Positions 1 to 57,600 of a stretch of 57,719 nt of DNA are shown here, piece by piece. Source of the DNA: a virus; IMG/VR virus record IMGVR_UViG_3300042922_000732, positions 1-57,719 of that record, one strand, 5' to 3'. The stretch's first letter is position 1. The number at the start of each line of letters is the position of its first letter. The notes beneath the pieces were generated by a model, which had not been told where the DNA came from, ran no database searches, and saw only the letters and a list, made by a program, of their open reading frames with translations. A program made the position numbers and the translations under genes.

Positions 1-165
1 ATAAATTATCAACCCCAACAACTTTTAAATCATTAGTTCTTGGTGCTACTGATAAATATCTTATTGAATTTCCCTTACTTCCTGCATATGGATCTACATA
101 TTTTACATTTTCCAAGCCTTTAATTTTCCTTAATTTATGCAACGGGTAATAAGTCGTCATCAATT
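1..165 (-). pseudogene. Distal part of a host gene interrupted by the prophage (attL side)
   Basis: On the minus strand one frame is open across this whole end, reading roughly TTYYPLHKLRKIKGLENV and on through YVDPYAGSKGNS to the window edge. It has no start or stop of its own here. When the prophage is removed on paper at the 7-bp core, this frame continues without a shift from the open minus-strand frame at 57493-57719, giving a junction that reads LLDTGHAKLMTTYY. I take it as the downstream part of a host protein-coding gene split by integration. I do not recognise the family. The gene's real ends lie outside the window. Confidence 0.75.
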
Positions 166-484: not shown

Positions 485-660
485 TTATCTTCTTTTTTTA
501 ATAATTAAAATTACGCGCTTAGTTTTTTTGTCACTCTCACCACTCATTTGTTATTCGCTCCCCTTATATCTTCCTTTAATTTCCCTTAGGAGGTTGATGC
601 ATAAACGTTTCTTTATGTAAATTATTATATAAAGTTATTCAATATTTGTAAAATAATAAA

Positions 661-696
661 AAGTTGCCAAAACTCTATTGAATTTTGGCAACTTTT
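661..696 (-). terminator. Terminator after the signal-peptide gene
   Basis: Perfect 12-bp inverted repeat AAGTTGCCAAAA (661-672) and its complement (683-694), followed on the minus strand by a T-run. It closes the leftward regulator-peptide unit and probably also insulates it from rightward integrase transcription. Confidence 0.75.
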
Positions 697-751
697 CTAG
701 TTTTTTTTGCAACATTTTTAACATTTTTTCTTTTAATTTGCTTTGATTATT

Positions 752-910
752 TTACCATCCGCCTGGATCATTAGATTGTAGATGAATTTGATTAGTGCTA
801 GACATTGTGCCATTTTTAGCATTGTTAGTACTTGTAGTTTGACTTGATGCAAATGCAACATTTGTTAATAACATTGATGTTGCAACCACTGCTAATATAA
901 TTTTTTTCAT
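752..910 (-). CDS. Small secreted pro-peptide, likely quorum-signal precursor
   Basis: A 52-residue protein with a textbook signal peptide: MKK, a hydrophobic core (IILAVVATSMLLTNV) and an AFA cleavage motif near residue 21. This leaves a polar mature part of about 31 residues ending in SNDPGGW. A GGAGGT ribosome site sits 8 nt before the ATG. It lies 112 bp downstream of the TPR regulator gene in the same direction and is closed by a terminator. This is the layout of RRNPP receptor-peptide pairs, where the C-terminal end is processed outside the cell and re-imported to bind the receptor. The mature signal (perhaps the last 5-8 residues) is inference. The open frame and signal peptide are seen directly. 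Confidence 0.75.
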   Translation of the reverse strand: MKKIILAVVATSMLLTNVAFASSQTTSTNNAKNGTMSSTNQIHLQSNDPGGW

Positions 911-1022: not shown

Positions 1023-2306
1023 TCAAAGATTTTCTATTAATTTATCATTAAATAGATTGCTTTTCTCCTCATTTCGATATTTATAATACTTTACAAGTTT
1101 GGCATAAATCTTATTGTAATCCACCATTAAGCTTTTCTCTTTTTTAATCAATGCTTCTATATTGGATTCATCTTCTCTTTCCATATAAATTTCTAATAAA
1201 TCATTAAGTGTTTTTTTCGTAACCTCTGTATCGTCTGCCTTATTTTTTTCACATACTTCTAATGCTCTTAGAAGATATGACTCGTAATCTCCATTTATAG
1301 ATTTATAAACCAACGATGCAAAATATAAATTTTCCGCTAAATACCAATTTCCAGGATTATGTTCTAAAGATTTATCAATTGATATTTGTGCATCTTTATA
1401 TTTCCTTTGTTTTAAATAAACTTCTGCTACATTCCTGTATGTCATTGCTATCAAACCTTTATCATTTATTCGAGCTACTGGTTCCATTATTTCAATAAAT
1501 CTATTGGCAGCTTCTTCTAATTCATTGTTATCAAGCAGGCAATTTGCATATAGCATCTTAATGTCAAGTTTCCTTCTATCATTCAACTCAAATTCATCTG
1601 TAAGTTTTTTTAAATATTTTTTTGCTTTATCATATTTTTCGGTTTTCTTATATATTAATGCTTTGTTAAAATAAATTCGCTGAGAAATTTCAGAATTATT
1701 TAAGTCTTTATTTATTTTAAGCGCATAATTAAGCTGTTCTAATGCTGGTTCATAATTTTTCCGTGCAACATCGTTCCGAGATTTGCTAATATATAAATTA
1801 GCTTCACCATGTATGTTATTTGAATTAAGACATATTTTTAATCCGCAGCTACACATTTGATCACTTCTTGTATATTTTTCCTTAAAGTAATAAATAGTTG
1901 CAGCTAATTTATACATTTCAATTTTCATATCATCTTTAATATTATATTTTTTTATTAAATTTTCTCCATAATTAAGTTTCCCCTCTAAATCACACAGTTC
2001 TTTAATATCATTTAAGGCATGTATAATACTTTTTGAAAATACATTGTTAGCTTGACTATCTTCATCTTCAGTTAATTGCTCAGCTGTAATGTGATCAATC
2101 TTAATCTCTTTCATATCTATAACTTTATTAATGTTCTTTGTAATTCCAATAGCCAATTTATAGCTTAAATGCTTCTTGCCATTTTCAATCCGACTAATTA
2201 AAAATTTTGAACATACTCTGTCGGCAACATCATCTTGAGTTGCTCCAATGAGTATTCTAAAATTCTTTAATTTTAAATTTGGAGACATAATTTCATTATC
2301 AAACAT
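1023..2306 (-). CDS. RRNPP-type transcriptional regulator (HTH plus TPR repeats)
   Basis: A 427-residue protein with an N-terminal XRE-type HTH (about residues 8-60: LKLKNFRILIGATQDDVADR, then a SRIENGK recognition region) followed by helical tetratricopeptide-like repeats across residues 120-420 (for example NKALIYKKTEKYDKAKKYL and YRNVAEVYLKQRKYKDAQ). Size and order match peptide-sensing cytoplasmic receptors of the PlcR/NprR/AimR group. The start is placed at the second ATG because AGGGA precedes it by about 9 nt; the ATG 18 nt upstream has no ribosome site. The secreted-peptide gene lies just downstream. Likely role: cell-density control of a phage decision. The regulated target is not visible from sequence. 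Confidence 0.8.
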   Translation of the reverse strand: MFDNEIMSPNLKLKNFRILIGATQDDVADRVCSKFLISRIENGKKHLSYKLAIGITKNINKVIDMKEIKIDHITAEQLTEDEDSQANNVFSKSIIHALNDIKELCDLEGKLNYGENLIKKYNIKDDMKIEMYKLAATIYYFKEKYTRSDQMCSCGLKICLNSNNIHGEANLYISKSRNDVARKNYEPALEQLNYALKINKDLNNSEISQRIYFNKALIYKKTEKYDKAKKYLKKLTDEFELNDRRKLDIKMLYANCLLDNNELEEAANRFIEIMEPVARINDKGLIAMTYRNVAEVYLKQRKYKDAQISIDKSLEHNPGNWYLAENLYFASLVYKSINGDYESYLLRALEVCEKNKADDTEVTKKTLNDLLEIYMEREDESNIEALIKKEKSLMVDYNKIYAKLVKYYKYRNEEKSNLFNDKLIENL

Positions 2307-2394
2307 TTTTTGCTTTCCCTTCATTCTGGAATTTAATATATACCTAACAAAAGAAAAGCTTGTATATGTAAATTGGTTCTATATTATATAAATA

Positions 2395-8138: not shown

Positions 8139-9836
8139 TTATTCTAACATTTTTGTATTCATGAAACTACGTACAAATTCTTTATTCTCATTATACTCGA
8201 ATTCATTAAGTAATTCATATTTGTTATTTTTAAGCTTAATTATATTATTAAATTTATACTTAGAATATTCTTTTTCTTCAAAGCCGATAGAAGATACAAT
8301 CAATTGTACTTCTTCACTAACTTCACTAAATAAATAATCAAATAGTTCTCTCTTCTTTTCTTTGTCTGTTTCAACATTATTAGGACTATCTAATACCAAT
8401 GGAAATCTTATTGCATTTGGATTAAATTCATCTCTAATTTTCAACAAATTAATATACCACATGATAGTTGCGATTGGCTTATTGCTACCTCCAGCTGTAA
8501 ATACATTACTTACATCTAATAAATTTTTGTTTTTTATTTCTTTTAATCCAAATCTTTCTTTATCTTTTATCATAAGCTCATAATATCTAGAATTTATTTT
8601 CTTTTTAGCTTCATCATAGTTCCTTTTCTCTTTATTTAACTCCTTCAATCTTTCATCTATGGTTAAAAGGTTTGATGTTATTGTTCCTAATTCCCGTATT
8701 ATAGTTTCCCTAAGTTCAATATATCCTTTATATTTTAAAATATCATTTATTTCTCTTGAGTTAATACTTATTTTTTCTTCGTATACATTTAATATTTCTA
8801 AAATATCTCTATACTTACTTTCTTCATTCTTAATCTTTTTCTCTATATTTATTAATATAAATTCTAAATCTTGTTTTAAAAATAATATGTCTTCTATCGT
8901 ATTGTATTTTTGGATACGAACTTCTAACTCATCCTCAATCCTTGATTTACAATATGGACAAATATGATTGATAATTTGTTTTACTTCTTTTTCTGTATCA
9001 TTGTTAAATACGTCTAATTCTTTAACATTGGAAATTAATTCTTCTTTTTGATTTCGAAGATTAATTAGGGATTTTTTTATTTTGTTTAAATTATCAATTA
9101 TCGTATTATATTCATCCTTGTATTGTTCTACTTCTATTTTCAGACTTTCTATATTCGTTGAATAATCAGTTCCTTTAATACTTTTATTAATTTTTTCGAG
9201 CATATTTTGATTAATAGTTCTCTCATCTTGATACTCTTTATGATTTCCTTTTAATTTTTCCAATTCTTTAATAAGTGTATAATATTCTCTAGTATACACA
9301 TTAAAATGATAATATAACACTTTGTCTTTATAATTAGAGTATTGTTGCAGATTCTTGAATGAACTAAAGTTTGTACCACGCATTTCATCTTGGTCTATAT
9401 AATTAAGTAAATAATTATATGCAGGTGGAGTTATTTCTAACTTATCATCTTTTTTATTTGGTAATTCTACTGCAAAATCAAATAATTCTTTTAAATATTC
9501 TGCAAGTTCTTCTCTAGTAATAGTTTTATATAATTCCTTAAAACCATCTTTTAAATATATCTTGAATAATCTTCCATGCCTAAATATATAGTATGATTTT
9601 TCTTTTACAATAAATTCTAAAATGAAAATTTTATTCTCCACATCCCATTGACCATCAAAAATACAATCTGCACCCAAAGAATGATAAATACTTTTTAGTA
9701 TAATAGATTTTCCTCTTTTAGTTCCATCTATTTCACTCGAAGTTATAATATTTCGTCCTTTAGTAAAGGGTATGACTTTAGCTTTCTTTTCATTTATTGA
9801 AAAAATATATAATTTAGTTATTATCAATCTATTCAT
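8139..9836 (-). CDS. SMC/Rad50-like ATPase with zinc hook (DUF2326/ABC-3C or Lamassu type)
   Basis: A 565-residue SMC-like protein. An N-terminal P-loop (GTKRGKSIIL, Lys at about 43) is followed by long coiled coils split by a CPYC zinc-hook motif (about 293-296). The C-terminal lobe has a signature-like TAGGSNKP (about 447) and Walker B FPLVLDSPNN (about 480), a wording typical of DUF2326-type ABC proteins in three-component defence systems. The start at 9836 uses GGAGAGG 5-11 nt upstream and overlaps the stop of the nuclease gene by 8 bp, so the two are translationally coupled. Such ATPases sense foreign DNA and license a partner nuclease in related systems. I cannot separate ABC-3C from Lamassu by eye. 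Confidence 0.75.
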   Translation of the reverse strand: MNRLIITKLYIFSINEKKAKVIPFTKGRNIITSSEIDGTKRGKSIILKSIYHSLGADCIFDGQWDVENKIFILEFIVKEKSYYIFRHGRLFKIYLKDGFKELYKTITREELAEYLKELFDFAVELPNKKDDKLEITPPAYNYLLNYIDQDEMRGTNFSSFKNLQQYSNYKDKVLYYHFNVYTREYYTLIKELEKLKGNHKEYQDERTINQNMLEKINKSIKGTDYSTNIESLKIEVEQYKDEYNTIIDNLNKIKKSLINLRNQKEELISNVKELDVFNNDTEKEVKQIINHICPYCKSRIEDELEVRIQKYNTIEDILFLKQDLEFILINIEKKIKNEESKYRDILEILNVYEEKISINSREINDILKYKGYIELRETIIRELGTITSNLLTIDERLKELNKEKRNYDEAKKKINSRYYELMIKDKERFGLKEIKNKNLLDVSNVFTAGGSNKPIATIMWYINLLKIRDEFNPNAIRFPLVLDSPNNVETDKEKKRELFDYLFSEVSEEVQLIVSSIGFEEKEYSKYKFNNIIKLKNNKYELLNEFEYNENKEFVRSFMNTKMLE

Positions 9837-10896
9837 AAACACCCTCTCCATATCTTACTAAAACTAATATGACTAATGCTTTCTTATCATCTGTAGTATA
9901 TTCTAATGTAAATTCATTCGAAAATATTTCTATTAATATTTCTGTAGTTTCTTCGAAAGTTTTATCTAATTCTTCCAAATGTTCATTAATATATTGGGCA
10001 ATCATCTCTTCAATTTTTTTTAATTGCTTATTTATAGTTAATTCTTTTACTATTTTACCAAGAGCTATATTCATCTTTGTATTATCTCTAAATCCATCAT
10101 ATATTTCATTAATTTTTGTCTTGGCTTTTTTAGTTGATTCATCTGCGACATTAATATATTTTTTTATGATTGTATTAAATTCTGATTTTGTTATACCTTT
10201 CTTACTAATAACTTCTGAATAATCATTACATTGTAATTCATAGTTTGCCTTCACAGCAATTGTATCTGATAATGCTCTATATAACGTCACTACCTTTTTA
10301 GGTTCTTCTCCTGTAATTTTCATAAAGAAATTAACTGTTTGTCCAATTAAACTGTTGGATGGTTCAAACAAATCCATAGAAGTAAAAATATAGTACGAAC
10401 TATTTAAATCTATATCTTCTTCTATATTTAATTCTTTTTTTAGGTTTTCATTAACCAATTCCATACTTTTTTCATCTAAATTTACTAGTTCAAATTCCTT
10501 TACAGATGATTTTATTTTCTTATCTGCTGTTTTTAAAGGTGTATTTACCACTATGGCTATTTTACTTTTTAAATCGCCTTCTTCATTATCAATAATATTT
10601 TTCAACACATATACTTTTCCTAATATAGAATTTCCTTGAGCATCAGGACCACTTATTTTTTTTATTGAATATGGAGAGCCCTTGCTACTTGTTTTAATTT
10701 GATAAAACTCCATAGACTCATTTAAATGCAATTCTATATCACATACATAATCAAATACCATTACAAAATCATTTTCCGACTCGTATATGTTATATATCTT
10801 CTCCAAACCCCATAACATTTCATTCCTAAATCTATTTTTAGAACGTGAACCAGATAAATCACAAGGTAATTTCATATACAAACTATCTTTATCCAA
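9829..10896 (-). CDS. DUF4297-like nuclease effector of the SMC-type defence pair
   Basis: A 355-residue protein. The N-terminus matches the Cap4/DUF4297 nuclease pattern: RFRNEMLWGLEKIY (about 22-35), FVMVFDYVCDIELHL (44-58) and EFYQIKTSSKG (63-73), a PD-(D/E)xK fold with the last catalytic pair as Q-x-K. The C-terminal two thirds are helical and may dock the ATPase. The start codon is TTG, 8 nt after GGGGGT. It is the first gene of a two-gene operon with the SMC-like ATPase. DUF4297 domains cut DNA in several anti-phage systems. The proposed role is defence of the lysogen against other phages. Confidence 0.65.
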   Translation of the reverse strand: MDKDSLYMKLPCDLSGSRSKNRFRNEMLWGLEKIYNIYESENDFVMVFDYVCDIELHLNESMEFYQIKTSSKGSPYSIKKISGPDAQGNSILGKVYVLKNIIDNEEGDLKSKIAIVVNTPLKTADKKIKSSVKEFELVNLDEKSMELVNENLKKELNIEEDIDLNSSYYIFTSMDLFEPSNSLIGQTVNFFMKITGEEPKKVVTLYRALSDTIAVKANYELQCNDYSEVISKKGITKSEFNTIIKKYINVADESTKKAKTKINEIYDGFRDNTKMNIALGKIVKELTINKQLKKIEEMIAQYINEHLEELDKTFEETTEILIEIFSNEFTLEYTTDDKKALVILVLVRYGEGVYE

Positions 10897-32860: not shown

Positions 32861-33514
32861 TCATTTAGAATTTTCATATCTTTTAACTAAATTATAAAAA
32901 CTATTTCTTTTTAATCCCATGAACTCCATGGCTTTTACTCCAGTTATTTCTCCACTTTTCCATTTTGAATATCCTTCTTCCCAATTAACCGGATATTCAA
33001 TTGATGGCCTACCAATATAGTTTTCTGTCTTAGATGATATTTTTTTCCCATTCTCTCCAACTTTCATAGCTGCTATTCCTTCAGCTTGTCTTTGCCTTAT
33101 TTTAATTCTTTCTTTTTCTGCCATATATGATAATAATTCAAAAACAATATTTGCTATTAAAGTTTTCTCTAAATCAGTTTTACCAACAGTATTTAGAATA
33201 GGTGTATCAATCACTACAATTTCTATTCCTCTTTTTTGAAGGTCTTGCCATTCTTCTTTTATCATTAGCATATCTCTTCCAAGTCTATCAAGTTCCTTAA
33301 TTATTAAGGTATCGCCTTCTCTGAGGAAAGTTTCTTTCAATGCTATGTATACCTCTCTATTGAAGTTCTTTCCTGATTTTTTCTCTTGAAAGATATCTCT
33401 TTCTTTATCTATATTTATATTATTTTCTTTACAATATGATGAAATGGCTTCTAATTGTCGCTCTAAACTTTGATCTCTTGTTGATACTCTGGCATAAGCA
33501 TAAGTTTTTTTCAT
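32861..33514 (-). CDS. Serine resolvase/invertase inserted in the head module
   Basis: A 217-residue small serine recombinase. The catalytic Ser is in YAYARVSTRDQ (residue 11), with KELDRLGRDM (about residue 70) and the E-helix (LIANIVFELLSYMAEKERIK). The C-terminal HTH is short (GEITGVKAMEFMGLKRNSFY). Start at 33514. Repeats of TTTTATAAACA lie just upstream and again at 37193-37308. These are good candidates for its binding sites. A resolvase between capsid and minor-head genes is unusual. Confidence 0.8.
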   Translation of the reverse strand: MKKTYAYARVSTRDQSLERQLEAISSYCKENNINIDKERDIFQEKKSGKNFNREVYIALKETFLREGDTLIIKELDRLGRDMLMIKEEWQDLQKRGIEIVVIDTPILNTVGKTDLEKTLIANIVFELLSYMAEKERIKIRQRQAEGIAAMKVGENGKKISSKTENYIGRPSIEYPVNWEEGYSKWKSGEITGVKAMEFMGLKRNSFYNLVKRYENSK

Positions 33515-33563
33515 TATAAACACCTCTAAAATTAAAATTTACTCTTAACTATAACTAAATTAT

Positions 33564-40508: not shown

Positions 40509-41210
40509 TCATTTAACTTCACTTTCTAATTTCTGAAATAACTCTTTTTTATATTTATAATATGTGTTTCTTGCTAGTCCTGCCAGCTTCATAGTTTCAA
40601 CATCATTCAATGATCCCTGAAAATCTTTACTATATTTTAATATTTGTTCTTTCGCTTCAATACTTTTTTTTGTAGTTAATTTAATTCCTTTTTTCTGTCC
40701 AATCTGTCTTCCATTTAATCTAGCTGTTTCTATTCCTTCTTTTGTTCTCTGATGTAGATCCGCTACTTCTTTTTCTGATTGTATGAAAGCTAGTTTTATT
40801 TGTTCTTTTGCCAGAGCTAACAAATACTTATTTATACCATCTAATATAAAATCAACATTAGTACCTGTCATTTCAACATTATTTGTAAGTGCCTTTTTAT
40901 AGGTGCTTGTGTTTATGTGCTGTTCTCTTAAGAATATCAATTCTATACCTTTATTAAATAATTCCTCATATAGCTTATATCCTTCTTCAGCATTTCTGCT
41001 CATACGTGATACAGAGTCAAATACTATTGTATCGCCTTCTGAAATCTTACTTAACAATTTATTAAACTCTTTTCTACCTTCTATTTTAGTTCCAGTAAAT
41101 GCTTCATCAATTATTATTACATTAGGATATTCTGCTAATATATTTCTATGTTGTCGCTCTATTGATTGTTTATTAGTTGATATTCTGCAATAACCATATA
41201 TTTTATTCAT
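40509..41210 (-). CDS. Second serine resolvase/invertase
   Basis: A 233-residue small serine recombinase: catalytic Ser in YGYCRISTNKQ (residue 11), FDSVSRMSRNAEEGYKLYEE, an E-helix region and a C-terminal HTH (GSLNDVETMKLAGLARNTYY). It is related to, but clearly different from, the resolvase at 32861. Start at 41210 follows GGGGTGAG. Repeats TTTTGATACT lie in its upstream region and are probable sites. It forms part of a set of five site-specific recombinases in this prophage. Confidence 0.8.
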   Translation of the reverse strand: MNKIYGYCRISTNKQSIERQHRNILAEYPNVIIIDEAFTGTKIEGRKEFNKLLSKISEGDTIVFDSVSRMSRNAEEGYKLYEELFNKGIELIFLREQHINTSTYKKALTNNVEMTGTNVDFILDGINKYLLALAKEQIKLAFIQSEKEVADLHQRTKEGIETARLNGRQIGQKKGIKLTTKKSIEAKEQILKYSKDFQGSLNDVETMKLAGLARNTYYKYKKELFQKLESEVK

Positions 41211-41256
41211 TGCTCTCACCCCGTATATTTGTAATATCATTTTTAACGTTCGTCTA

Positions 41257-42427: not shown

Positions 42428-43054
42428 TTAAAAAATGTAGTCATTCATAGTTTTAGCTGAATCTTCTCCAATATCATCATCCACTCCAATATAAGCTAAT
42501 GTCGTTTCTCTTTTAGCATGTCCAAATAATCTTTGAACAAAATTTATATCTTTTTCATGTTTGATATATTGTCTATATCCATATGATTTTCTAGGTGTAT
42601 GGGTACCGATAGTCTCAGATTCTTTACATATCCCTAACTCAACAGCTACATTTTTATATATCTTTCCTAATCGATCACGTCTTACATGCTGTTTCAATCC
42701 TCCTCTTCCACTAGATCTTGGAGCAGGATAAATATAGGCCGCATCACTTTTTCCATAGACATAATCTTTTAACACATTTAGTAACTTACTTGGAATAATC
42801 TCTTCACGTTCAAACTTCTTCTTTCTTGAATGTTCTGTTTTTTCTTCTAGTATACTTATTCTTCCTGTTTCTATGGATTTTTTTATATCAGAAACGGTTA
42901 ACTTTACTAAGTCTCCACCTCTAAATCCAGTTCCTATAGCTATTGTCCATAGTATATAAGCTGGATAATCAACTTCTTTTAACCTTAATGCAATTCTTTT
43001 TAAGTCTTCAGGTTTTTTTATTGTCATTGATGTATTTTTGCCCTTCTTCTTCAC
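42428..43054 (-). CDS. Short tyrosine recombinase (catalytic domain only)
   Basis: A 208-residue protein with all catalytic residues: R45 (GTGFRGGDL), Lys in the beta-hairpin region (about 79), H152-x-x-R155 (HTPRKSYGY), H179 (LFGHAKRETT) and Y188 (LAYIG). The usual N-terminal SAM-like arm/core-binding domain is missing. GTG start overlaps the stop of the zinc-finger gene by 4 bp. Such short forms occur in phage early/late junctions and may be RitA- or Xer-like helpers, perhaps for dimer resolution. The integrase proper is the serine protein at 55792. Confidence 0.8.
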   Translation of the reverse strand: MKKKGKNTSMTIKKPEDLKRIALRLKEVDYPAYILWTIAIGTGFRGGDLVKLTVSDIKKSIETGRISILEEKTEHSRKKKFEREEIIPSKLLNVLKDYVYGKSDAAYIYPAPRSSGRGGLKQHVRRDRLGKIYKNVAVELGICKESETIGTHTPRKSYGYRQYIKHEKDINFVQRLFGHAKRETTLAYIGVDDDIGEDSAKTMNDYIF

Positions 43055-47077: not shown

Positions 47078-48082
47078 TTAAACTACTAACTTTCTATATT
47101 CATGTTTAAGATTTTCCTGACTTAATCGAGCATAATTTTGATGTGTAGTGGTTGGTGTAGTATGTCCTAATATTTCTTGAACTCCTACAATTGACATTCC
47201 ACTATTTAATAATGTAGTTGCCTGAGTCCTTCTAAACTTATGAGCATGGACTCTTTCAGTTACATCTGTTCTTTTCCTTATTCTAGTTAACATTAACTGT
47301 AATGCTCTTACTTTGATATGATTGTGTGGAGCTTTCTCAGATAAAAATAAATATTCTGATATACCTTCTCTAGTTTCAATATACTTTTTCATATGAATCT
47401 TTGCTTTAGTTGAGAAGAAAACAACTCTCTGCTTACTACCCTTGCCAGTTACAATAATGCTTTTTTCATTCCAGTTTATATCATCTAGTTTTATATTCTT
47501 TAATTCACTAATTCTACAGGCTGTACTTGTAAGTAATTCAAAGAAAGTTTTTTCACGTTCTGTATTACATGCATCTCTTAAACTTTCAAGACTTTCTTGT
47601 TTATAGCATTTTTGAATTATTTTAGGAACTTTAGTTTGTTTTAATTTACTTGCTGGATTAGCAAATATATACTCCTCATTTTGTAGCCATCCAAAAAAAC
47701 CTTTTAGGCATGTTATATATCCATTTATTGTTGATGGCTGCTTATTTGTACTCATAAGTTGTAAAAACATTCTCAAATCCATTGTTGTTATAGTTGAAAC
47801 TGGCTTTGTAAAAAATAGATCTAATTTGTTAAGAAATAATCTGTAATTGGTTAAAGTCTTTTCACTTAGTCCTTCTAATCTCTTACATGCAATAAATATT
47901 TGTGCTTTCACTTCAATATCACTTGCAACTAGATCCTTACATTTTGTATTAATTTCATAATCATATAAAGTTTCATCTATTTTATTCTTCACTTCTAATT
48001 GAAAAGATAAATCCTGTTCCAATACCGGCATTAATAAAGTTAATTTTCCTAGTAGTCTTATGCTCAATTCATCATTTAACAT
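47078..48082 (-). CDS. Full-length tyrosine recombinase (XerC/D-like)
   Basis: A 334-residue protein with core-binding domain (about 50-145: KRLEGLSEKTLTNYRLFLNK, FGW) and catalytic domain: R190 (TACRISEL), Lys (GKGSKQR, about 217), H281-x-x-R284 (HKFRRTQAT), H307 (LGHTTPTT) and Y317. All key residues are present. It lies in the early replication region, far from the att site, so it is probably not the integrase. It may resolve multimers of the replicating circle or act at dif-like sites. It is one of five recombinases here. Confidence 0.85.
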   Translation of the reverse strand: MLNDELSIRLLGKLTLLMPVLEQDLSFQLEVKNKIDETLYDYEINTKCKDLVASDIEVKAQIFIACKRLEGLSEKTLTNYRLFLNKLDLFFTKPVSTITTMDLRMFLQLMSTNKQPSTINGYITCLKGFFGWLQNEEYIFANPASKLKQTKVPKIIQKCYKQESLESLRDACNTEREKTFFELLTSTACRISELKNIKLDDINWNEKSIIVTGKGSKQRVVFFSTKAKIHMKKYIETREGISEYLFLSEKAPHNHIKVRALQLMLTRIRKRTDVTERVHAHKFRRTQATTLLNSGMSIVGVQEILGHTTPTTTHQNYARLSQENLKHEYRKLVV

Positions 48083-51133: not shown

Positions 51134-51865
51134 CTATTCTCTTTTGACTTCATTTGCAATTTTTATCATTGTATATTTTAAATATCCATAACCAGTAAAT
51201 TTATTTACACCTTTAAATATGGAATTTTTATCTATGTAATAGCCTTTCTTTGCTTTTGGAACTGATTTATACCATTCTCTTGTGCTAATAATTATTTTAT
51301 TTGGTTCAGGTATTAATAGATTTTTGCTGCAGTTCCATCTCTTACTTTGCAGTTCTTTGCTTTTACATGTTTGTTTTATTAAATAAGATGCTAATTCTGC
51401 ATACTGTCCGGTCTCATCTAAAGGGAAAACTTTAACTCTTCCCTTCGTCCAACATTTTTGAAGTATCTTGGTGTCTATATGATTTATAACCAGATGATGA
51501 TGCCTGGCACCTTTACTCCCAACTTCCATTACATGTATATACTTTAATTCCTTGCCTTGTTTTTTATATTCTTTTCTAAGTTCTCTAAGAGCTTTATCTA
51601 TATCTTCTCTCATTTGCTCTTTTGTATCTGGTCTTTCATCTTTTCTATAATCAAATACTGTATGAAAATCTCCTTCTCCATAATTTGCATTTATTCTCTG
51701 TCTTAATTTTTTCTCTGCTAATTTTAAATTTATCTCTTGTTGATCTTCTGTAGTTTTATTTACAACTTCTCCTCTTTTTACCCCTTTAGCTTTATATCTA
51801 AGGGTATAGTATTTTTCCACCTCTACTGTTTTACCAGCATTAGTTATACTCATAATGTATGGCAT
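51134..51865 (-). CDS. HUH replication-associated endonuclease (REP type)
   Basis: A 243-residue protein. Motif II is ARHHHLVINH (HUH at about 122-124), motif III is ELASYLIKQTCK (catalytic Tyr at about 161, Lys at about 164), and ELKYIHVMEVGSKG fits motif I. This is the pattern of rolling-circle Rep proteins found in many clostridial and bacillus phages. It would nick an origin for replication. Start at 51865 after GAGG. No nick-site hairpin was identified by eye with confidence. Confidence 0.7.
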   Translation of the reverse strand: MPYIMSITNAGKTVEVEKYYTLRYKAKGVKRGEVVNKTTEDQQEINLKLAEKKLRQRINANYGEGDFHTVFDYRKDERPDTKEQMREDIDKALRELRKEYKKQGKELKYIHVMEVGSKGARHHHLVINHIDTKILQKCWTKGRVKVFPLDETGQYAELASYLIKQTCKSKELQSKRWNCSKNLLIPEPNKIIISTREWYKSVPKAKKGYYIDKNSIFKGVNKFTGYGYLKYTMIKIANEVKRE

Positions 51866-51986
51866 ATCTATAACCTCACTTGTCATCTTCTGTAAATGTT
51901 AAATATCTTTTATATTTGTCCTAAAGTTAATAGATTTATCAAGTCTCAAAGCCTTGATTTCATTTGATTTTTCGCCATACATTTGG

Positions 51987-52066
51987 TATAATATTTTTAA
52001 AGATTTTTTAAGCAAATGTATAGCTTAGGTGAGTATGATTAGGCAAAATCATACTCACTCTTTTTT
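51987..52066 (+). ncRNA. Predicted small RNA opposite the replication genes
   Basis: An extended -10 (TGGTATAAT, TATAAT at 51987-51992) is followed by about 65 nt ending in a perfect 12-bp hairpin (GTGAGTATGATT at 52029-52040, complement at 52047-52058) and a T-run. ATACATTTG (ends 51985) and CAAATGTAT (about 52013-52021) form an inverted repeat around the promoter. No rightward gene precedes it. A short antisense-side transcript is the simplest reading; the hairpin could instead serve as a two-way terminator. Confidence 0.45.
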
Positions 52067-52069
52067 ACA

Positions 52070-52219
52070 TTAATGTAAAAAAATGCTGTACTTTTCATTT
52101 GTAAACTTGTCCTCTTTCATTTTTGAGCAACACCATGGGCATTTATAGCCATCTTTAGGTATGCTTTTCTTTATACTTACATTCCAATGCAATCTGCATT
52201 TTATGCACTTGATAGTCAT
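52070..52219 (-). CDS. Small zinc-ribbon protein
   Basis: A 49-residue protein with two CxxC pairs (IKCIKCRLHWNVS and YKCPWCCSKMKED). It starts 4 bp past the AbrB stop, so it is probably co-translated. Basic, likely nucleic-acid binding. Confidence 0.6.
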   Translation of the reverse strand: MTIKCIKCRLHWNVSIKKSIPKDGYKCPWCCSKMKEDKFTNEKYSIFLH

Positions 52220-52223
52220 AGCA

Positions 52224-52463
52224 TTACTTCTTCATTTCATCTAAGCATCTTGTACAAATATTCTTGCCTTTATAATTTATTACATCCTTCCCTTCGTTGC
52301 AGAATATACAAGTCGGCTCATATTTTTTTAATATTATTTGATCTCCATCTGTATATATTTCCATTGGATCACATTCATTTATATCCATTGTTTTTCTTAG
52401 TTCCTTTGGAATTACTATCCTTCCTAACTCGTCGACCTTCCTTACTATTCCTGTTGCTTTCAT
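52224..52463 (-). CDS. AbrB/SpoVT-like transition-state regulator with Cys cluster
   Basis: A 79-residue protein. The N-terminal SpoVT_AbrB swapped-hairpin domain is plain: MKATGIVRKVDELGRIVIPK, ELRKTMDINECDPMEIYTDG. The C-terminal part (CIFCNEGKDVINYKGKNICT) has a four-cysteine cluster found in clostridial AbrB paralogues. It is a DNA-binding dimer that may repress host or phage genes in growth-phase control. GGAG ribosome site. Confidence 0.85.
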   Translation of the reverse strand: MKATGIVRKVDELGRIVIPKELRKTMDINECDPMEIYTDGDQIILKKYEPTCIFCNEGKDVINYKGKNICTRCLDEMKK

Positions 52464-52551
52464 TTTTTATTTCTCCTCTCAATTTTTAAATTATTTTTTA
52501 TATTAATTTCAACATATGGTAAAATTATGTTGAAAGGGGGGGACTCTATTT

Positions 52552-52980
52552 ATGAAATTAAATCCTGATTGTATTCGAGATATTTTACTTACTGTTGAAG
52601 AAGAAACTTCACCTTCATCTCAATTTGTATATAAGCCTTCTGAAAAATACACTAATAGATTTCTTCTAGATGATGAATCAGAAGACGAACATCAAATAAT
52701 ACATGAAAGATTGAAATCTTATACAGATGAAGAAATCTTATATCATATCAATCAATGTGAACTATCTGGCTTTTTTACTAACGTTAATCCATGTACTGGA
52801 TATTTATATTTCATTCAAGATTTGTCACCACTTGGTCATCAGTTTCTAGCTGATATTCGTTCTGATACCAATTGGAATAAAACTAAAGATATTGCAAAAA
52901 AAGTCGGTTCGTTTTCTCTAAACACTTTAAAGGATATTTCTGTAAAAGTTATATCTGATGTTATTTCCAAATCTTTTTAA
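52552..52980 (+). CDS. DUF2513-family protein
   Basis: A 142-residue rightward gene: MKLNPDCIRDILLTVEEETS, ERLKSYTDEEILYHINQCEL, SGFFTN, and LSPLGHQFLADIRSDTNWNK, the standard pattern of DUF2513 (a small winged-helix-like protein found in mobile elements). AGGGGGGG precedes the ATG. Its 3' end overlaps the end of the convergent gene at 52961 by 20 bp. It may be a moron with its own promoter. Function unknown. Confidence 0.8.
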   Translation: MKLNPDCIRDILLTVEEETSPSSQFVYKPSEKYTNRFLLDDESEDEHQIIHERLKSYTDEEILYHINQCELSGFFTNVNPCTGYLYFIQDLSPLGHQFLADIRSDTNWNKTKDIAKKVGSFSLNTLKDISVKVISDVISKSF

Positions 52981-53170
52981 ATTTATTTAAAATGCTGCTG
53001 ATTGAATTTTTCACTGCCCAATCAGTGGCATTTTTAAGTTCTTCTTCTGTTGGCTTAATATTATTCATTTCCATATAATGAATTGCTCCACATAATCCAT
53101 GAAAATAAGCAAACCATTTTACTATTGCCAATGCAGCTAATCCTGATACTATTAAAAGTAATATCATCAT
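52961..53170 (-). CDS. Small single-pass membrane protein
   Basis: A 69-residue protein: one N-terminal membrane segment (MILLLIVSGLAALAIVKWFA) and a helical tail (IKPTEEELKNATDWAVKNSI). It overlaps the DUF2513 stop convergently. Not recognised. Confidence 0.55.
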   Translation of the reverse strand: MMILLLIVSGLAALAIVKWFAYFHGLCGAIHYMEMNNIKPTEEELKNATDWAVKNSISSILNKFKKIWK

Positions 53171-53201
53171 TTCTTGCCTCCCAATTTATTAAGGCTTATT
53201 A

Positions 53202-53399
53202 TTAAGCTTTTCTTTTAATGAAATAAAACTTATTTTCATCTGTTTTAAAGATGAATTTCAAATTGTAATTTTTTAAATCTAATACTCCAACCGCTTCTCC
53301 CTTTGGAGATATAAGAATATAATTATTTATATCTTCCATGGCTTGTACTTTTTTAATTTGCTTAACGCTAATTTGTATTGCTCCATTATCGCTTATCAA
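53202..53399 (-). CDS. Unknown small protein
   Basis: A 65-residue beta-rich protein (DNGAIQISVKQIKKVQAMED, INNYILISPKGEAVGVLDLK). It lies in the compact string of tiny early genes between 53202 and 53848. No family recognised. Confidence 0.5.
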   Translation of the reverse strand: MISDNGAIQISVKQIKKVQAMEDINNYILISPKGEAVGVLDLKNYNLKFIFKTDENKFYFIKRKA

Positions 53400-53414
53400 T
53401 ATTATTATTTTTTA

Positions 53415-53540
53415 TCATCTCCTTTCATCTTCAATTTCAGATTCAACTGGATCAAACCCCTGTTCTATTAATGATGAAAATTCAATTTCCATTTCATTAC
53501 CTTCTACATTTCCAAATTTAAATTCATATCCTGTTTCCAT
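53415..53540 (-). CDS. Tiny acidic protein
   Basis: A 41-residue acidic protein (YEFKFGNVEGNEMEIEFSSL, IEQGFDPVESEIEDERR) with a good GAGGGAG ribosome site. It may mimic nucleic acid or be an inhibitor peptide; only charge supports that. Confidence 0.5.
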   Translation of the reverse strand: METGYEFKFGNVEGNEMEIEFSSLIEQGFDPVESEIEDERR

Positions 53541-53558
53541 AACTTTTCTCCCTCTCAT

Positions 53559-53693
53559 TTATTTTTTATTAAAATATCTATTCATATAATCATCTAAATT
53601 CTGACTAGCTATTAATGCTTCAATAGAAGCATGTCCATATTTATTAATTGCTTCATGCATCAGTTCTCTTAGCTCCTCTCCCTTTATATCCAT
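53559..53693 (-). CDS. Spo0E-like small protein
   Basis: A 44-residue protein: EELRELMHEAINKYGHASIE, then ALIASQNLDDYMNRYF. Two helices joined by a short turn and the SQxLD signature (S30, L33, D34) match the Spo0E family of aspartyl-phosphate phosphatases, which act on Spo0A-P and delay sporulation. The ATG overlaps the TGA of the gene before it (ATGA), so the two are coupled, with GGTAAG in place of a strong ribosome site. A phage copy could hold the host in the growth state. The match is by motif and length only. Confidence 0.55.
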   Translation of the reverse strand: MDIKGEELRELMHEAINKYGHASIEALIASQNLDDYMNRYFNKK

Positions 53694-53848
53694 CACTTAC
53701 CCCTTTCTTTAATTTGTTTCACCACTTCTTTCATAGTTGCTTCTCCAAATTTAGCAATTAAACTTTCAGCCATGCTCTTATGAAATTCATTTATTAGTTC
53801 TTCGCTTGGTGGATTTTTCTCATAAAATTCAAACTCTCTATTCACCAT
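53693..53848 (-). CDS. Small protein coupled to the Spo0E-like gene
   Basis: A 51-residue protein: EFEFYEKNPPSEELINEFHK, SMAESLIAKFGEATMKEVVK. The second half weakly resembles the helix-turn-helix layout of the next gene (compare IAKFGEATMKEV with INKYGHASIEAL), hinting at an old duplication. GGAG ribosome site. Function unknown. Confidence 0.5.
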   Translation of the reverse strand: MVNREFEFYEKNPPSEELINEFHKSMAESLIAKFGEATMKEVVKQIKERGK

Positions 53849-53959
53849 TTACACTTCTCCTTAAAATAAATTTATTTTGATATTGTATGTATTTTTAAAA
53901 ATTTCAACCTTATCTTAAGCTGTTTTTATAATTTGAGCTTTTCAAAAATTCTAACTAAA

Positions 53960-54199
53960 TCATAATATCCTGTGTTCTTCTGTTACCTTTTCTATCCATC
54001 TATCCAAAGCTCTTCTATCTATAGATGTTCTAGCTCCAACTTTGAAGAAAGGAAAGTCTGTTTTTGGTTTCTCAACAAGCTCTCTTAACTTTTCATGTCC
54101 AATGCCCAGGTAATTGGCTGCTTCTTGGATTGAAAAAGTTATCTTTTCAGGTTTTTCAGTTTTTAGCGCTGCCAATATTTCTTTCAATAATTCTTCCAT
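53960..54199 (-). CDS. Excisionase-family (MerR-like HTH_17) DNA-binding protein
   Basis: A 79-residue protein: ITFSIQEAANYLGIGHEKLR, ELVEKPKTDFPFFKVGARTS and IDRRALDRWIEKV form the winged-helix excisionase pattern. It may be the recombination directionality factor for the serine integrase or a plain regulator; serine integrase RDFs vary widely, so this is a candidate only. AAGGAG ribosome site. Its upstream region is one copy of a duplicated element. Confidence 0.75.
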   Translation of the reverse strand: MEELLKEILAALKTEKPEKITFSIQEAANYLGIGHEKLRELVEKPKTDFPFFKVGARTSIDRRALDRWIEKVTEEHRIL

Positions 54200-54215
54200 G
54201 AAATCAATCTCCTTA

Positions 54216-54282
54216 AAATAAATTTATTGTATTAGTATGTGCATATTGTAAAATTCTAAACTTATTTTAAGTTATGTATTGG
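54216..54282. repeat. Duplicated regulatory segment, copy 1
   Basis: About 65 bp upstream of the excisionase-like gene, nearly the same as 54477-54540. Common blocks are AAATAAATTTATT, TATTAGTATGTGCA and AATTCTAAACTTATTTTAAG. A more diverged version lies at about 53862-53935. Each precedes a leftward small gene, so the element probably holds promoter and operator. Confidence 0.65.
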
Positions 54283-54287
54283 TCTTA

Positions 54288-54462
54288 TCATTTAATATAA
54301 TGATGAGATCTAATTCTTAATTCAAAGTACCTTTTCATCGCTTCGGTTCTCTTTTCTGGATTTAATTCTCTAACTCCACCTTTAAATATTTGTTGAATAT
54401 TAATTATTACTTCTTTAGCTTCTTCTGTTAATTCTTGAGTTTCATTCAATAGTTCTTTCATG
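54288..54462 (-). pseudogene. Small early gene with a frameshift
   Basis: A strong GGAGG site and ATG at 54462 start MKELLNETQELTEE, which hits TAA after about 15 codons. If one base near 54420 is skipped (GAAGAAAGCTAAAG), the frame goes on as AKEVIINIQQIFKGGVRELN, PEKRTEAMKRYFELRIRSHH and ends at 54288, 57 residues in all. Either a mutation, a sequencing error or a +1 shift site; the stop directly at the shift point leaves the last open. Confidence 0.5.
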
Positions 54463-54476
54463 GAATCAACCTCCTT

Positions 54477-54540
54477 AAAATAAATTTATTATATTAGTAT
54501 GTGCACATTGTGGAATTCTAAACTTATTTTAAGTTACTGT
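54477..54540. repeat. Duplicated regulatory segment, copy 2
   Basis: Second copy of the element at 54216-54282, upstream of the frameshifted gene at 54462. The central TGTGCACA is palindromic in this copy. Confidence 0.65.
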
Positions 54541-54684
54541 TTTATATATTATTTGTTACGTCAAAAATTGCAGCAAGGCTATTTTTCTATAGTTAAACTG
54601 AATATAATCGCTTCGAGCTATAAAACGTGATATATAAGTTTTGTTATGTTAATGATTTGATTAAGGCTCTTTAGCCCATTTATC

Positions 54685-54834
54685 CTATTTTTGTTTTTCC
54701 AAAGAGTTAATTAATTCTTTTAATTCTTCCAGATTTAATTTTTTTAAAGTTATCTTTGCAAGTACTCTTGCATAAGCACTTTCTAAAATATCTTTTCCTT
54801 CTTTTGTTCCCGGTAATACCAAAGATACTTTCAT
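54685..54834 (-). CDS. Small early protein
   Basis: A 49-residue protein: MKVSLVLPGTKEGKDILESA, YARVLAKITLKKLNLEELKE. A strong AGGGGGGAG site precedes the ATG. A longer open frame on the same strand (54707-54922) gives an implausible, very basic translation and is taken as its shadow. Function unknown. Confidence 0.6.
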   Translation of the reverse strand: MKVSLVLPGTKEGKDILESAYARVLAKITLKKLNLEELKELINSLEKQK

Positions 54835-54912
54835 TGTGCTCCCCCCTATTCATATATCCATAATATGTTTTACCCTTCGCTTGTGTTACTTTGAATTTTC
54901 TTCTTTTTAATT

Positions 54913-55131
54913 TTAAGAACAACTCTTTTCATCATTAACCTCCTCGATCATTTCGTTAATTGAAATACCTAAACCTTTTGCAATTTTTACTGCAGTATCA
55001 AAACGAGGATTTGGATTATTCCCTTCTACAATGTCGTACAATGTCGCATACCCAACTTTGCATTTTTTTGCTGCAGAATTAATTGTCATGTTCCTTTTTT
55101 TAATAGCTTGTACAATTACTGTTATATTCAC
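54913..55131 (-). CDS. Cro-like XRE repressor, first leftward early gene
   Basis: A 72-residue HTH protein: VIVQAIKKRNMTINSAAKKC, KVGYATLYDIVEGNNPNPRF, DTAVKIAKGLGISINEMIEE. GTG start after GGGGGG. It is transcribed away from the main repressor gene, from the promoter at 55170-55198, with two operators on and near it. By position it is the Cro counterpart in the lysis-lysogeny switch. Confidence 0.8.
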   Translation of the reverse strand: MNITVIVQAIKKRNMTINSAAKKCKVGYATLYDIVEGNNPNPRFDTAVKIAKGLGISINEMIEEVNDEKSCS

Positions 55132-55143
55132 TTCGCACCCCCC

Positions 55144-55191
55144 TATCGGTTTACCGTGATTATGTTTAAATTATATATCGGTAATTTGATA
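55144..55191 (-). promoter_or_regulatory. Leftward early promoter with operators O1 and O2
   Basis: On the minus strand TTGTCA (55198-55193), a 17-bp spacer and TATAAT (55175-55170) form a strong promoter for the Cro-like and early genes. O2, TATCGGTAATTTGATA (55176-55191), fills the spacer; O1, TATCGGTTTACCGTGA (55144-55159), lies after the start point. Both fit the 16-bp pattern TATCGG-N4-CYGATA. Confidence 0.75.
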
Positions 55192-55281
55192 GTGACAAAG
55201 TCTATATTTTGCCTTTACAACTTGTTTTTTAATTAAAATCATACTTTTTCTTAAAAAATCTAAAAATTGCTTTTATTGTCT

Positions 55282-55365
55282 TATCACTTAACCGATATTA
55301 TTTTTAATATTTGTCGATATACCGATAATTGTTTTTCTTGAAAGTTATCGGAAAACTGATATAAT
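55282..55365 (+). promoter_or_regulatory. Repressor-integrase promoter with operators O3, O4, O5
   Basis: On the plus strand TTGAAA (55338-55343), a 16-bp spacer and TATAAT (55360-55365) precede the repressor gene. O5, TATCGGAAAACTGATA (55346-55361), lies in the spacer. O4 (55312-55327) and O3 (55282-55297) have the reverse orientation of the same pattern. The repressor should thus control its own gene and the integrase. Confidence 0.75.
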
Positions 55366-55414
55366 TATATTTAAATAAAAATAAATTATAATTTATTAAA
55401 GGATGGTTAATATA

Positions 55415-55792
55415 ATGGAAATTAGTACATTAGGTATGAATATTAAGACTTTAAGAGAGAAAAAGGGATGGAGCGTAAACAAATTAAAAGAAATTAGTTC
55501 TGTTGGATATGCAACTCTACATGACATAGAAAGTGGCAAAAGTCAAACAATGAATTCTAAAAGCCTAGAAAAAGTTGCTAGAGCACTTAATACTACAAGT
55601 GATGATCTATTAAATATAGAATCTATAGAGTTTGTAGTTGAAGATATCGCAGAAACTATAGATGCTATTTTTGAATCAGAGGAATTAAAATTAGATGGAA
55701 TAAATTTAAGTGAATACGAAACTGAATTTTTGAAAGACTTCTTCGCCGCAGGAGTAGAGAAAATAAGAAAGAAAAGAGTTGAACAAAAATAA
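55415..55792 (+). CDS. CI-like XRE repressor
   Basis: A 125-residue protein: N-terminal HTH (LGMNIKTLREKKGWSVNKLK, SSVGYATLHDIESGKSQTMN) and a short helical C-terminal part without a LexA-type peptidase, so induction is probably not by self-cleavage. Start at 55415 with AAAGGA about 9 nt upstream; the ATG at 55403 has none. Its stop shares one base with the integrase ATG (TAATG), so repressor and integrase are translated together, an unusual link of immunity and recombination. Confidence 0.85.
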   Translation: MEISTLGMNIKTLREKKGWSVNKLKEISSVGYATLHDIESGKSQTMNSKSLEKVARALNTTSDDLLNIESIEFVVEDIAETIDAIFESEELKLDGINLSEYETEFLKDFFAAGVEKIRKKRVEQK

Positions 55793-57600
55793 TGAACAAA
55801 AGAATTGCGATATATAGTAGAAAATCAAAGTTTACTGGAAAAGGCGATTCGATAGAAAACCAAATTGAAATGTGTAAGGATTACATAGAAAAAAATATAG
55901 GCACAAATACTGAAATAACTGTATATGAGGATGAAGGTTTTAGTGGCGGAAATCTTGATAGACCTAAGTTTAAAAAATTAATGTCTGATATTAAAAATAA
56001 AAAAAACGATATCTTAATATGTTATAGATTAGATCGTATTTCTAGAAATGTTGCAGATTTCTCTTCAACATTAGAATTGCTACAAGCTAATAATTGTGAT
56101 TTTATATCAATAAAAGAACAATTTGACACTAGTACGCCTATGGGAAGAGCAATGATATATATTGCTAGTGTATTTGCTCAATTAGAGCGTGAGACAATAG
56201 CAGAGCGCGTTAAAGATAATATGCTTGAAATGGCAAAAAACGGTCGATGGACTGGCGGAAAAATCCCACTCGGTTTTCATTCTGAAAAAATAAAAGTAAT
56301 CGACGAACAAGGATTAACAAGAGAAACTCCACAATTAATTGTTAATGATGAAGAAATACAATTTGTTAAGTTTCTATATGAAAAATATCTAGAATTAGGA
56401 AGTTTGCATAAATTAGAGGTATATATAACTCAAAATCAAATTAAATCTAGAAATGGCATTCTATATGAAAAATCTTCACTTAAAATAATTTTGCAGAACC
56501 CTATATACGTAAAGGCTAATGAGAATGTTGTAGAATATCTAAAAAATAATAATTGGTCCATTTACGGTGTTGCTGATAATATACATTCTTTATTGACTTA
56601 CAATAAGACAGAACAAACCAAGAAAAATGGAAAGTATACTAAACAAAATAAGCCTCTAGACGAAAGATTCGCAGCTGTAAGCAACATAAAAGGTTTTATT
56701 GATCCACAATTATGGTTAAATGTTCAATATCAGTTTGATAAAAACAGAGATAAATTCCCACGCCTAGGGAAAACACATAATGCTCTTTTGGTTGGAAAGC
56801 TAAAGTGTGGAAAATGTAAAGAATATATGTTAATTCAACACGGCAAAGTATCTGCTGTTACTGGGAAAAAATTATTTTATTATACATGTTCACTTAAAAG
56901 AAAATCTCACAGATCATTATGCAATAATGATAACGCTAAAGCTGATAAAATTGAAAATCTAGTTTTATTATCTCTAAAAAGTTTAGCCTATAAACAAGAT
57001 GAATATTTAAATAATATAAAAAAAGGTTACAAAGAAATGACAAGCCAAAAAGGAATTAAAATAGAATTTCTTTCTCTTAAGCAATCATTAAACGAGAAAA
57101 AAAATCAAATTGATAATTTAGTAAATAAACTTTCCTTTGCTCCCGAAATATCAGATATATTATTAGAAAAAATAAAAACCTTAAAATCAGAATGTATTGA
57201 TATAGAAAGCAAAATACATTCATTAAAATCTAATGAAGACAAAGCAAAATTAGAGTTATTAAATATAGAAATTATTAAACAATTATTAGATAAATGCGCA
57301 AATATAGAACATCTTACTAGAGACGAGCAAAAAGAAATTATTGACACTTTAATTGATGTTGTTTATTGGTATGGCAATGGAGATGATGAAGGCATAAAAA
57401 TTAAATTCATAGGCACAAATGAGGAAGATAGCACTATTGAATATACTGAAGCTGAACTGCAATCGATGTTGCAGTTCAGTTCACCTAGCATGGCCCGTAT
57501 CGAGAAGAATGATATTTTCCGCAAATTCTTTCAAGGCATATTGCTGGCAAACCTTTGTATTAAGCTTGTCATAATTTATATCTTCCTTTGGGACCTTTAA
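55792..57600 (+). CDS. int: Large serine integrase, C-terminus replaced on integration
   Basis: A large serine recombinase of 602 residues as it stands. Catalytic Ser9 lies in YSRKSKFTGKGDSIENQ, with YRLDRISRNVADFSSTLELL and RERVK-type features in the resolvase domain. The recombinase domain follows (TGGKIPLGFHSEK to about 330), then a zinc ribbon (LKCGKCKEYM and YYTCSLKRKSHRSLCNN, about 337-375) and the coiled-coil motif (about 400-490). Codons after the core at 57486-57492 are antisense host DNA and encode a chance tail (RIEKNDIFRKFF...). In the phage circle the frame would pass through the core into the HTH at 173-445, giving 657 residues. Confidence 0.9.
   Translation: MNKRIAIYSRKSKFTGKGDSIENQIEMCKDYIEKNIGTNTEITVYEDEGFSGGNLDRPKFKKLMSDIKNKKNDILICYRLDRISRNVADFSSTLELLQANNCDFISIKEQFDTSTPMGRAMIYIASVFAQLERETIAERVKDNMLEMAKNGRWTGGKIPLGFHSEKIKVIDEQGLTRETPQLIVNDEEIQFVKFLYEKYLELGSLHKLEVYITQNQIKSRNGILYEKSSLKIILQNPIYVKANENVVEYLKNNNWSIYGVADNIHSLLTYNKTEQTKKNGKYTKQNKPLDERFAAVSNIKGFIDPQLWLNVQYQFDKNRDKFPRLGKTHNALLVGKLKCGKCKEYMLIQHGKVSAVTGKKLFYYTCSLKRKSHRSLCNNDNAKADKIENLVLLSLKSLAYKQDEYLNNIKKGYKEMTSQKGIKIEFLSLKQSLNEKKNQIDNLVNKLSFAPEISDILLEKIKTLKSECIDIESKIHSLKSNEDKAKLELLNIEIIKQLLDKCANIEHLTRDEQKEIIDTLIDVVYWYGNGDDEGIKIKFIGTNEEDSTIEYTEAELQSMLQFSSPSMARIEKNDIFRKFFQGILLANLCIKLVIIYIFLWDL
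57452..57492. other. attR: attP left arm and core TAGCATG
   Basis: Core TAGCATG at 57486-57492. The arm GTTGCAGTTCAGTTCAC (57468-57484) is inverted relative to GTGAATAAAACTGCAAC (179-195), 14 of 17 matched, so the joined circle has a dyad attP centred on TG. CTGAACTGCAA at 57452-57462 and TTGCAGTTCAG at 57469-57479 form a further perfect inverted repeat within the integrase gene, so a third copy of the half-site motif lies beside attP. Confidence 0.75.

What the first reader, a model, noticed from the sequence alone, without database searches (positions are those of the whole stretch)
53559..53848. Phage-encoded Spo0E-like protein
A 44-residue protein with two helices and SQNLD resembles Spo0E phosphatases that remove phosphate from Spo0A. 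In a sporulating host the phage would profit from blocking or timing sporulation. Together with the peptide receptor and AbrB-like protein it suggests control over the host life cycle. The upstream coupled gene may be a diverged duplicate.
Basis: partly seen in the sequence, partly recalled or inferred. Interest (0 to 1): 0.7.

Follow-up and report, generated by a model that had tools for sequence, protein, structure and literature searches.

The report
Phage copy of Spo0E sporulation brake
A Clostridium phage carries a very small gene of the Spo0E family, proteins that bacteria use to hold back spore formation, placed among the genes the phage probably switches on early when it multiplies; such genes had been reported in phages before, so this is a real but largely expected find.

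Summary
Window 53559-53693 (-) encodes a 44-aa protein with SQNLD at residues 30-34. It belongs to PF09388 (Spo0E-like: 34.4 bits, cut-off 23, E 2e-8). It is modelled confidently as a two-helix hairpin (pLDDT 94) and overlays the Bacillus anthracis Spo0E-like phosphatase 2c0s without gaps, SQNLD on SQELD. Related phages carry orthologues in the same early region, and dN/dS of about 0.28-0.44 (0.14 for one pair) indicates a selected gene. The 51-aa gene upstream is coupled but is not a supported duplicate.

The gene lies downstream of a cI/Cro-type switch. Best reading: repressed in lysogens, expressed early in lytic growth, to dephosphorylate Spo0A~P and keep the host from sporulating. The phosphatase step is inferred from the family, not shown.

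The phage also carries an RRNPP receptor with its peptide and an AbrB/SpoVT-like protein. In related bacterial genomes 12 of 15 homologous receptors have a Spo0E gene close behind; in the phage the two are about 4.8 kb apart across the record's ends, in different transcription units.

Phage Spo0E genes, and phage quorum sensing next to spo0E or abrB, are already published. This is a new member of a known kind.

The parts
53559..53693 (-). Spo0E-like protein, 44 aa, SQNLD at residues 30-34
   Evidence: PF09388 34.4 bits (cut-off 23); model; 2c0s; dN/dS
53693..53848 (-). 51-aa coupled upstream ORF of unknown function; not a supported Spo0E duplicate
53849..53910 (-). leader of the two-gene unit: third, diverged copy of a repeated leader ending AATAAATTTATTTTAAGGAG
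53415..53558 (-). 47-aa downstream ORF, same strand, no family match
53960..54199 (-). HTH_17/excisionase-family protein; all 4 of its viral relatives found also carry a PF09388 ORF
54913..55131 (-). Cro-like HTH protein, first gene of the early operon
   Evidence: PF01381
55132..55402 (.). divergent control region: five TATCGG/CCGATA half-sites, early promoter TTGTCA-17-TATAAT (55198-55170, -), opposite promoter (55338-55365, +)
55403..55792 (+). cI-like HTH repressor
55792..57600 (+). large serine recombinase (integrase)
52224..52463 (-). AbrB/SpoVT-N-like DNA-binding protein with CxxC...CxxC tail; in the Clostridium sp. LS phage it directly follows spo0E
51134..51886 (-). G2P-like replication protein used to find related phages
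1023..2324 (-). RRNPP-type receptor (HTH + TPR), 40-60% identical to receptors in related genomes that are usually followed by spo0E-like genes
752..910 (-). propeptide with signal peptide MKKIILAVVATSMLLTNVAFA, C-terminus SNDPGGW
658..697 (-). intrinsic terminator behind the peptide gene, ending the receptor-peptide unit

Best explanation
The gene encodes a Spo0E-family two-helix protein acquired by a temperate Clostridium phage. It is transcribed from the early lytic promoter, which lies in a cluster of operator half-sites between a cI-like and a Cro-like gene, so it should be silent in the lysogen and made early after infection or induction. The protein would bind the receiver domain of host Spo0A~P, place the aspartate of SQNLD (D34) in the acid pocket and speed loss of the phosphate, so that the cell stays vegetative while the phage replicates. 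Shown here: the gene, family membership, predicted fold, motif register, purifying selection, conserved early position in several phages, and Spo0A in the host of the closest named relative. Inferred: expression timing, binding to Spo0A, phosphatase activity, and the benefit to the phage.
For: PF09388 above cut-off. Predicted hairpin, pLDDT 94; gapless 44/44 superposition on 2c0s, rmsd 1.4, which puts S30 on S35 and D34 on D39. The best viral structural match is the annotated Spo0E protein of Geobacillus phage TP-84 (annotation in PMC10969951). S and D of the motif are invariant in every phage and host relative aligned. dN/dS is 0.27/0.97, 0.38/0.87 and 0.34/0.78 against L083, L084 and L085. 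All four phages whose replication protein is at least 76% identical carry a PF09388 gene upstream of it; none of 20 more distant ones does. A syntenic prophage (G076:C17) has integrase, early module with Spo0E and AbrB, receptor and peptide in the same order. Clostridium sp. LS, host of the closest named relative, has two full-length Spo0A. Operator cluster: 5 half-sites in 273 bp against 0.06 expected. C. difficile Spo0E represses sporulation and is modelled with its SxxxD aspartate at the Spo0A phosphorylation site (PMC11115286).
Against: No biochemical or expression data. C. difficile and B. subtilis Spo0E do not cross-complement and have Spo0A-independent roles (motility in both, toxin in C. 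difficile; PMC11115286), so family membership does not fix the target. The hairpin fold is common: CP12 hairpins score higher than 2c0s. The host of this exact phage is unknown. The operator reading rests on short half-sites. One comparison (L088) shows no excess of silent change.
Confidence: 0.6

Rival explanations
1. The protein is a Spo0E relative that acts on another partner: another response regulator, or an RRNPP receptor of the phage or host (as C. difficile Spo0E is proposed to contact RstA), thereby tuning lysogeny, motility or quorum sensing rather than sporulation.
For: C. difficile Spo0E is modelled on the TPR domain of RstA and controls motility and toxin independently of Spo0A (PMC11115286). 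This phage carries an RRNPP receptor, and the nearest relatives of its Spo0E outside phage early regions include ones encoded next to such receptors.
Against: The Clostridium sp. LS genome, with a phage that has an orthologous Spo0E, lacks any receptor of this family at E 1e-30, so the phage protein is kept without it. The SxxxD motif needed for action on Spo0A is intact.
Confidence: 0.2
2. The gene acts in the lysogen under quorum-sensing control: the phage receptor and peptide set Spo0E level with prophage density, so lysogens delay or time sporulation together.
For: Homologous receptor-peptide pairs in related genomes have a spo0E-like gene close downstream in 12 of 15 cases. Such pairs control spo0E in Paenibacillus (PMC7425212), and phage QSS plus spo0E/abrB is a proposed sporulation-hijacking signature (PMC10075063).
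Against: In this phage the receptor-peptide unit ends in its own terminator, spo0E is about 4.8 kb away across the record's ends behind the cI/Cro switch, and no long sequence is shared between the two control regions.
Confidence: 0.15
3. A neutral passenger picked up from the host, or a two-helix protein whose likeness to Spo0E is superficial.
For: The protein is very small, and two-helix hairpins are common.
Against: Curated family score, motif register, dN below dS and conserved phage position.
Confidence: 0.05

Closest known systems
Spo0E family of protein aspartic acid phosphatases (PF09388; B. anthracis 2c0s; B. subtilis and C. difficile Spo0E)
   Same: Profile match, size range, helix-loop-helix hairpin, SQxLD motif in the same register
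   Different: At the short end of the family (44 aa), phage-borne, in an early phage operon; activity untested
Spo0E-like genes of phages (Geobacillus TP-84 TP84_51; Brevibacillus SecTim467 gp70)
   Same: Phage-encoded Spo0E family protein, likewise annotated by similarity (PMC10969951, PMC4909266)
   Different: Different phages and hosts; 28% identity to TP-84 in the structural alignment; SecTim467 gp70 was not aligned here
Phage RRNPP quorum sensing with adjacent spo0E or abrB, the proposed sporulation-hijacking signature (PMC10075063)
   Same: One phage carries receptor, peptide, Spo0E-like and AbrB-like genes
   Different: Here spo0E and abrB are not adjacent to the receptor-peptide pair and are in another transcription unit
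Chromosomal QssR-QssP-spo0E units of Clostridium saccharoperbutylacetonicum and AloR-AloP-spo0E of Paenibacillus (PMC7206700, PMC7425212)
   Same: RRNPP receptor, secreted propeptide and a spo0E-like gene; in the Clostridium relatives examined here receptor and peptide are homologous to the phage's
   Different: Genes in a row there; split in the phage

Membership tests
Spo0E-like (PF09388) | Curated profile score above cut-off | tested here: met
   34.4 bits against 23, E 2.2e-8
Spo0E-like (PF09388) | SxxxD / SQxLD signature in helix 2 | tested here: met
   SQNLD, residues 30-34; aligned to S35-D39 of 2c0s
Spo0E-like (PF09388) | Small protein (40-100 aa) folding as two helices joined by a loop | tested here: met
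   44 aa, helices 3-19 and 24-43, pLDDT 94
Spo0E-like (PF09388) | Dephosphorylates Spo0A~P | not testable with these tools
   Needs phosphatase assay
Spo0E-like (PF09388) | Reduces sporulation when expressed | not testable with these tools
   Needs spore counts
Spo0E-like (PF09388), for the upstream 51-aa ORF | Profile score above cut-off and SxxxD | tested here: not met
   No PF09388 hit, no SxxxD; 5-6 bits to a custom profile
Phage quorum-sensing / sporulation-hijacking signature (PMC10075063) | Receptor with DNA-binding domain plus secreted propeptide gene next to it | tested here: met
   HTH + TPR receptor 1023-2324 (the HTH match itself is weak, 18 bits) and MKKIILAVVATS... peptide 752-910
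Phage quorum-sensing / sporulation-hijacking signature (PMC10075063) | spo0E or abrB homologue adjacent to the receptor-peptide pair | tested here: not met
   About 4.8 kb apart across the record's ends, with a terminator behind the peptide gene

The most novel reading that the evidence does not exclude
The phage took apart a host quorum-sensing unit (receptor, peptide, spo0E). It kept receptor and peptide at one end and moved the Spo0E brake under its own lytic switch, so that sporulation is blocked in cells that produce phage, while the receptor-peptide pair reads prophage density or neutralises the host unit.
Probability: 0.2. Interest if true: 0.65.

Novelty: new member of a known kind. 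Interest (0 to 1): 0.4.

Why it matters
Spores resist phage, so phages of spore-formers should gain from holding the host out of sporulation. Phage sigma factors and truncated Spo0A are known candidates for this; a phage Spo0E would act one step upstream, at the phosphorylation of Spo0A. This phage and its syntenic relative G076:C17 give a small, testable case (one 44-aa gene, one aspartate), with the receptor-peptide pair in the same genome.

Tried and rejected
Upstream ORF as a Spo0E duplicate: rejected as unsupported. tblastn of the 44-aa protein in annotated phages and plasmids, and of two relatives in phages: no match; such short divergent proteins are hard to reach by tblastn in collections of this size, so this does not show absence. 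The search for related loci with the upstream 51-aa protein gave one locus (L002) that looks like chance. Single-sequence phmmer against the PDB found nothing; the profile did. PHROGs and NCBIfam had no clear Spo0E family match. A tree of 23 Spo0E proteins is too poorly resolved to tell from which lineage the phage gene came. A search for sequence shared between the quorum-sensing and early control regions found only AT-rich 11-12-mers. Rfam: nothing in 52000-55800.

Full report
Observation. The stretch 53559-53848 holds two overlapping minus-strand genes. The second, 53559-53693, encodes MDIKGEELRELMHEAINKYGHASIEALIASQNLDDYMNRYFNKK. The stop of the first and the start of the second share a base (TGATG), with AGGGG just upstream.

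Family. Pfam PF09388 (Spo0E-like) matches residues 6-40 with 34.4 bits against a curated cut-off of 23, E 2.2e-8. A profile built from the window protein and seven viral relatives finds PDB 2c0s, a B. anthracis protein aspartic acid phosphatase of this family, at E 1e-6. AlphaFold2 gives two helices, 3-19 and 24-43, with mean pLDDT 94. The model aligns to 2c0s over all 44 residues without gaps (1..44 to 6..49, Z 6.0, rmsd 1.4), so S30 and D34 fall on S35 and D39 of its SQELD. Other helical hairpins, CP12 for instance, score higher, so the fold alone proves little; the sequence profile and the motif register carry the claim. The best viral structural match is the annotated Spo0E protein of Geobacillus phage TP-84.

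Relatives. The record is an IMG/VR virus. Related genes were reached through its neighbours. All four viral contigs with a close HTH_17 neighbour protein also carry a PF09388 ORF. Of 24 viral contigs with a related G2P-like replication protein, the four at 76% identity or more all carry a PF09388 ORF a short way upstream of it, and the 20 at 61% or less do not (several of these are fragments). Nearest relatives of the protein are L083 (58-59%), L012/L084 from Clostridium sp. LS (52%) and L085 (50-54%); L012/L084 and L085 lie in phage early regions, and L083 is on a short contig that is probably one too. Nei-Gojobori dN/dS of the window against these is 0.27/0.97, 0.38/0.87 and 0.34/0.78, and 0.15/1.09 between L084 and L085: the protein sequence is under selection. 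S and D of the motif are invariant throughout.

Upstream gene. The 51-aa neighbour has no PF09388 match, no SxxxD, a Smith-Waterman score reached by 1.7% of shuffles, and 5-6 bits to a Spo0E profile. It is modelled with three helices and Foldseek finds no match in the PDB. Duplication is not supported.

Expression setting. The gene lies in a minus-strand run that starts with a Cro-like protein (54913-55131), divergent from a cI-like repressor (55403) and the integrase (55792). The 273 bp between them hold five TATCGG/CCGATA half-sites against 0.06 expected, next to an 11-of-12 promoter on each strand. This is the layout of a lysis-lysogeny switch, so I infer that spo0E is repressed in the lysogen and made early in lytic growth. 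A leader of about 60 nt ending AATAAATTTATTTTAAGGAG is repeated in front of three early genes, the spo0E unit included.

Companions. At the other end of the record is an RRNPP-type receptor (1023-2324; HTH and TPR) followed by a secreted propeptide (752-910) and a terminator. Among 15 receptor homologues in 7 of 98 related genomes, 12 have a Spo0E-like gene close behind. In the window, and in the syntenic prophage G076:C17, the receptor and peptide stand alone and Spo0E is in the early operon. The phage also carries an AbrB/SpoVT-N-like protein (52224-52463), which in the Clostridium sp. LS phage follows spo0E directly. That host has two full-length Spo0A and eight PF09388 genes over the cut-off, its phage's included, but no receptor of this family at E 1e-30, so the phage Spo0E does not depend on the receptor.

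Mechanism. By family knowledge Spo0E proteins inhibit sporulation by removing phosphate from Spo0A~P; the aspartate of SxxxD is critical, and in C. difficile Spo0E represses sporulation and is modelled at the Spo0A phosphorylation site (PMC11115286). I take the phage protein to do the same to host Spo0A during the lytic cycle (0.6). Target specificity is the weak point: Spo0E of C. difficile and B. subtilis do not cross-complement and have Spo0A-independent effects.

Known or new. Spo0E-like genes in phages are annotated (Brevibacillus SecTim467, PMC4909266; TP-84, PMC10969951). Phage quorum-sensing systems next to spo0E or abrB were proposed as a sporulation-hijacking signature in 2023 (PMC10075063), and receptor-peptide control of spo0E was shown in Paenibacillus (PMC7425212) and studied in Clostridium (PMC7206700). 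The gene is thus a new member of a known kind. What is slightly different is that the parts are split, with Spo0E placed under the lytic switch.

Noticed in passing
53849-53920, 54205-54270, 54467-54530 (-): Three copies of a leader (CTTAAAATAAG...AATAAATTTATTTTAAGGAG) before three early genes; in two copies the ends pair in a 15-bp stem that runs into the ribosome-binding site (fold z -2.3 and -2.8), the third copy, before the spo0E unit, folds poorly.
   Followed up: partly
57719 to 1 (record ends): A minus-strand ORF reads in frame across the record's ends and matches the C-terminal part of GIDA (PF01134, E 1e-4, just under its cut-off), so the record is probably a circular molecule cut inside this gene; ParA/ParB and a G2P-like replication protein would fit a plasmid-like phage, while the syntenic relative G076:C17 sits in a larger contig.
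   Followed up: partly
L003:5326-5799: A phage protein of 157 aa with a Spo0E-like domain at its C-terminus (43 bits), that is a Spo0E domain fused to another domain.
   Followed up: no
L079 (G031:C80): A GGDEF protein of Clostridium sp. LS ends in a Spo0E-like stretch with SQYLD (21 bits, just under the cut-off).
   Followed up: no
genomes G032, G034, G035, G038, G040, G041: In these hosts of distantly related, Spo0E-free phages the Spo0A match covers only the effector domain (about residues 130-260); it could be a diverged or missing receiver, and may simply follow phylogeny.
   Followed up: no
4395-5528 (-): Protein kinase-like ORF by eye (HRDIRNENILI...IDFGFGKK) near the receptor end of the phage.
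   Followed up: no
8139-10896 (-): Two adjacent genes (570 and 355 aa), the first resembling an SMC-like coiled-coil ATPase by eye; looks like a defence-type pair.
   Followed up: no
32861-33523, 40509-41240, 42428-43054, 47078-48082 (-): Two small serine recombinases and two tyrosine recombinases (by eye, the last confirmed by Pfam) besides the large serine integrase.
   Followed up: no
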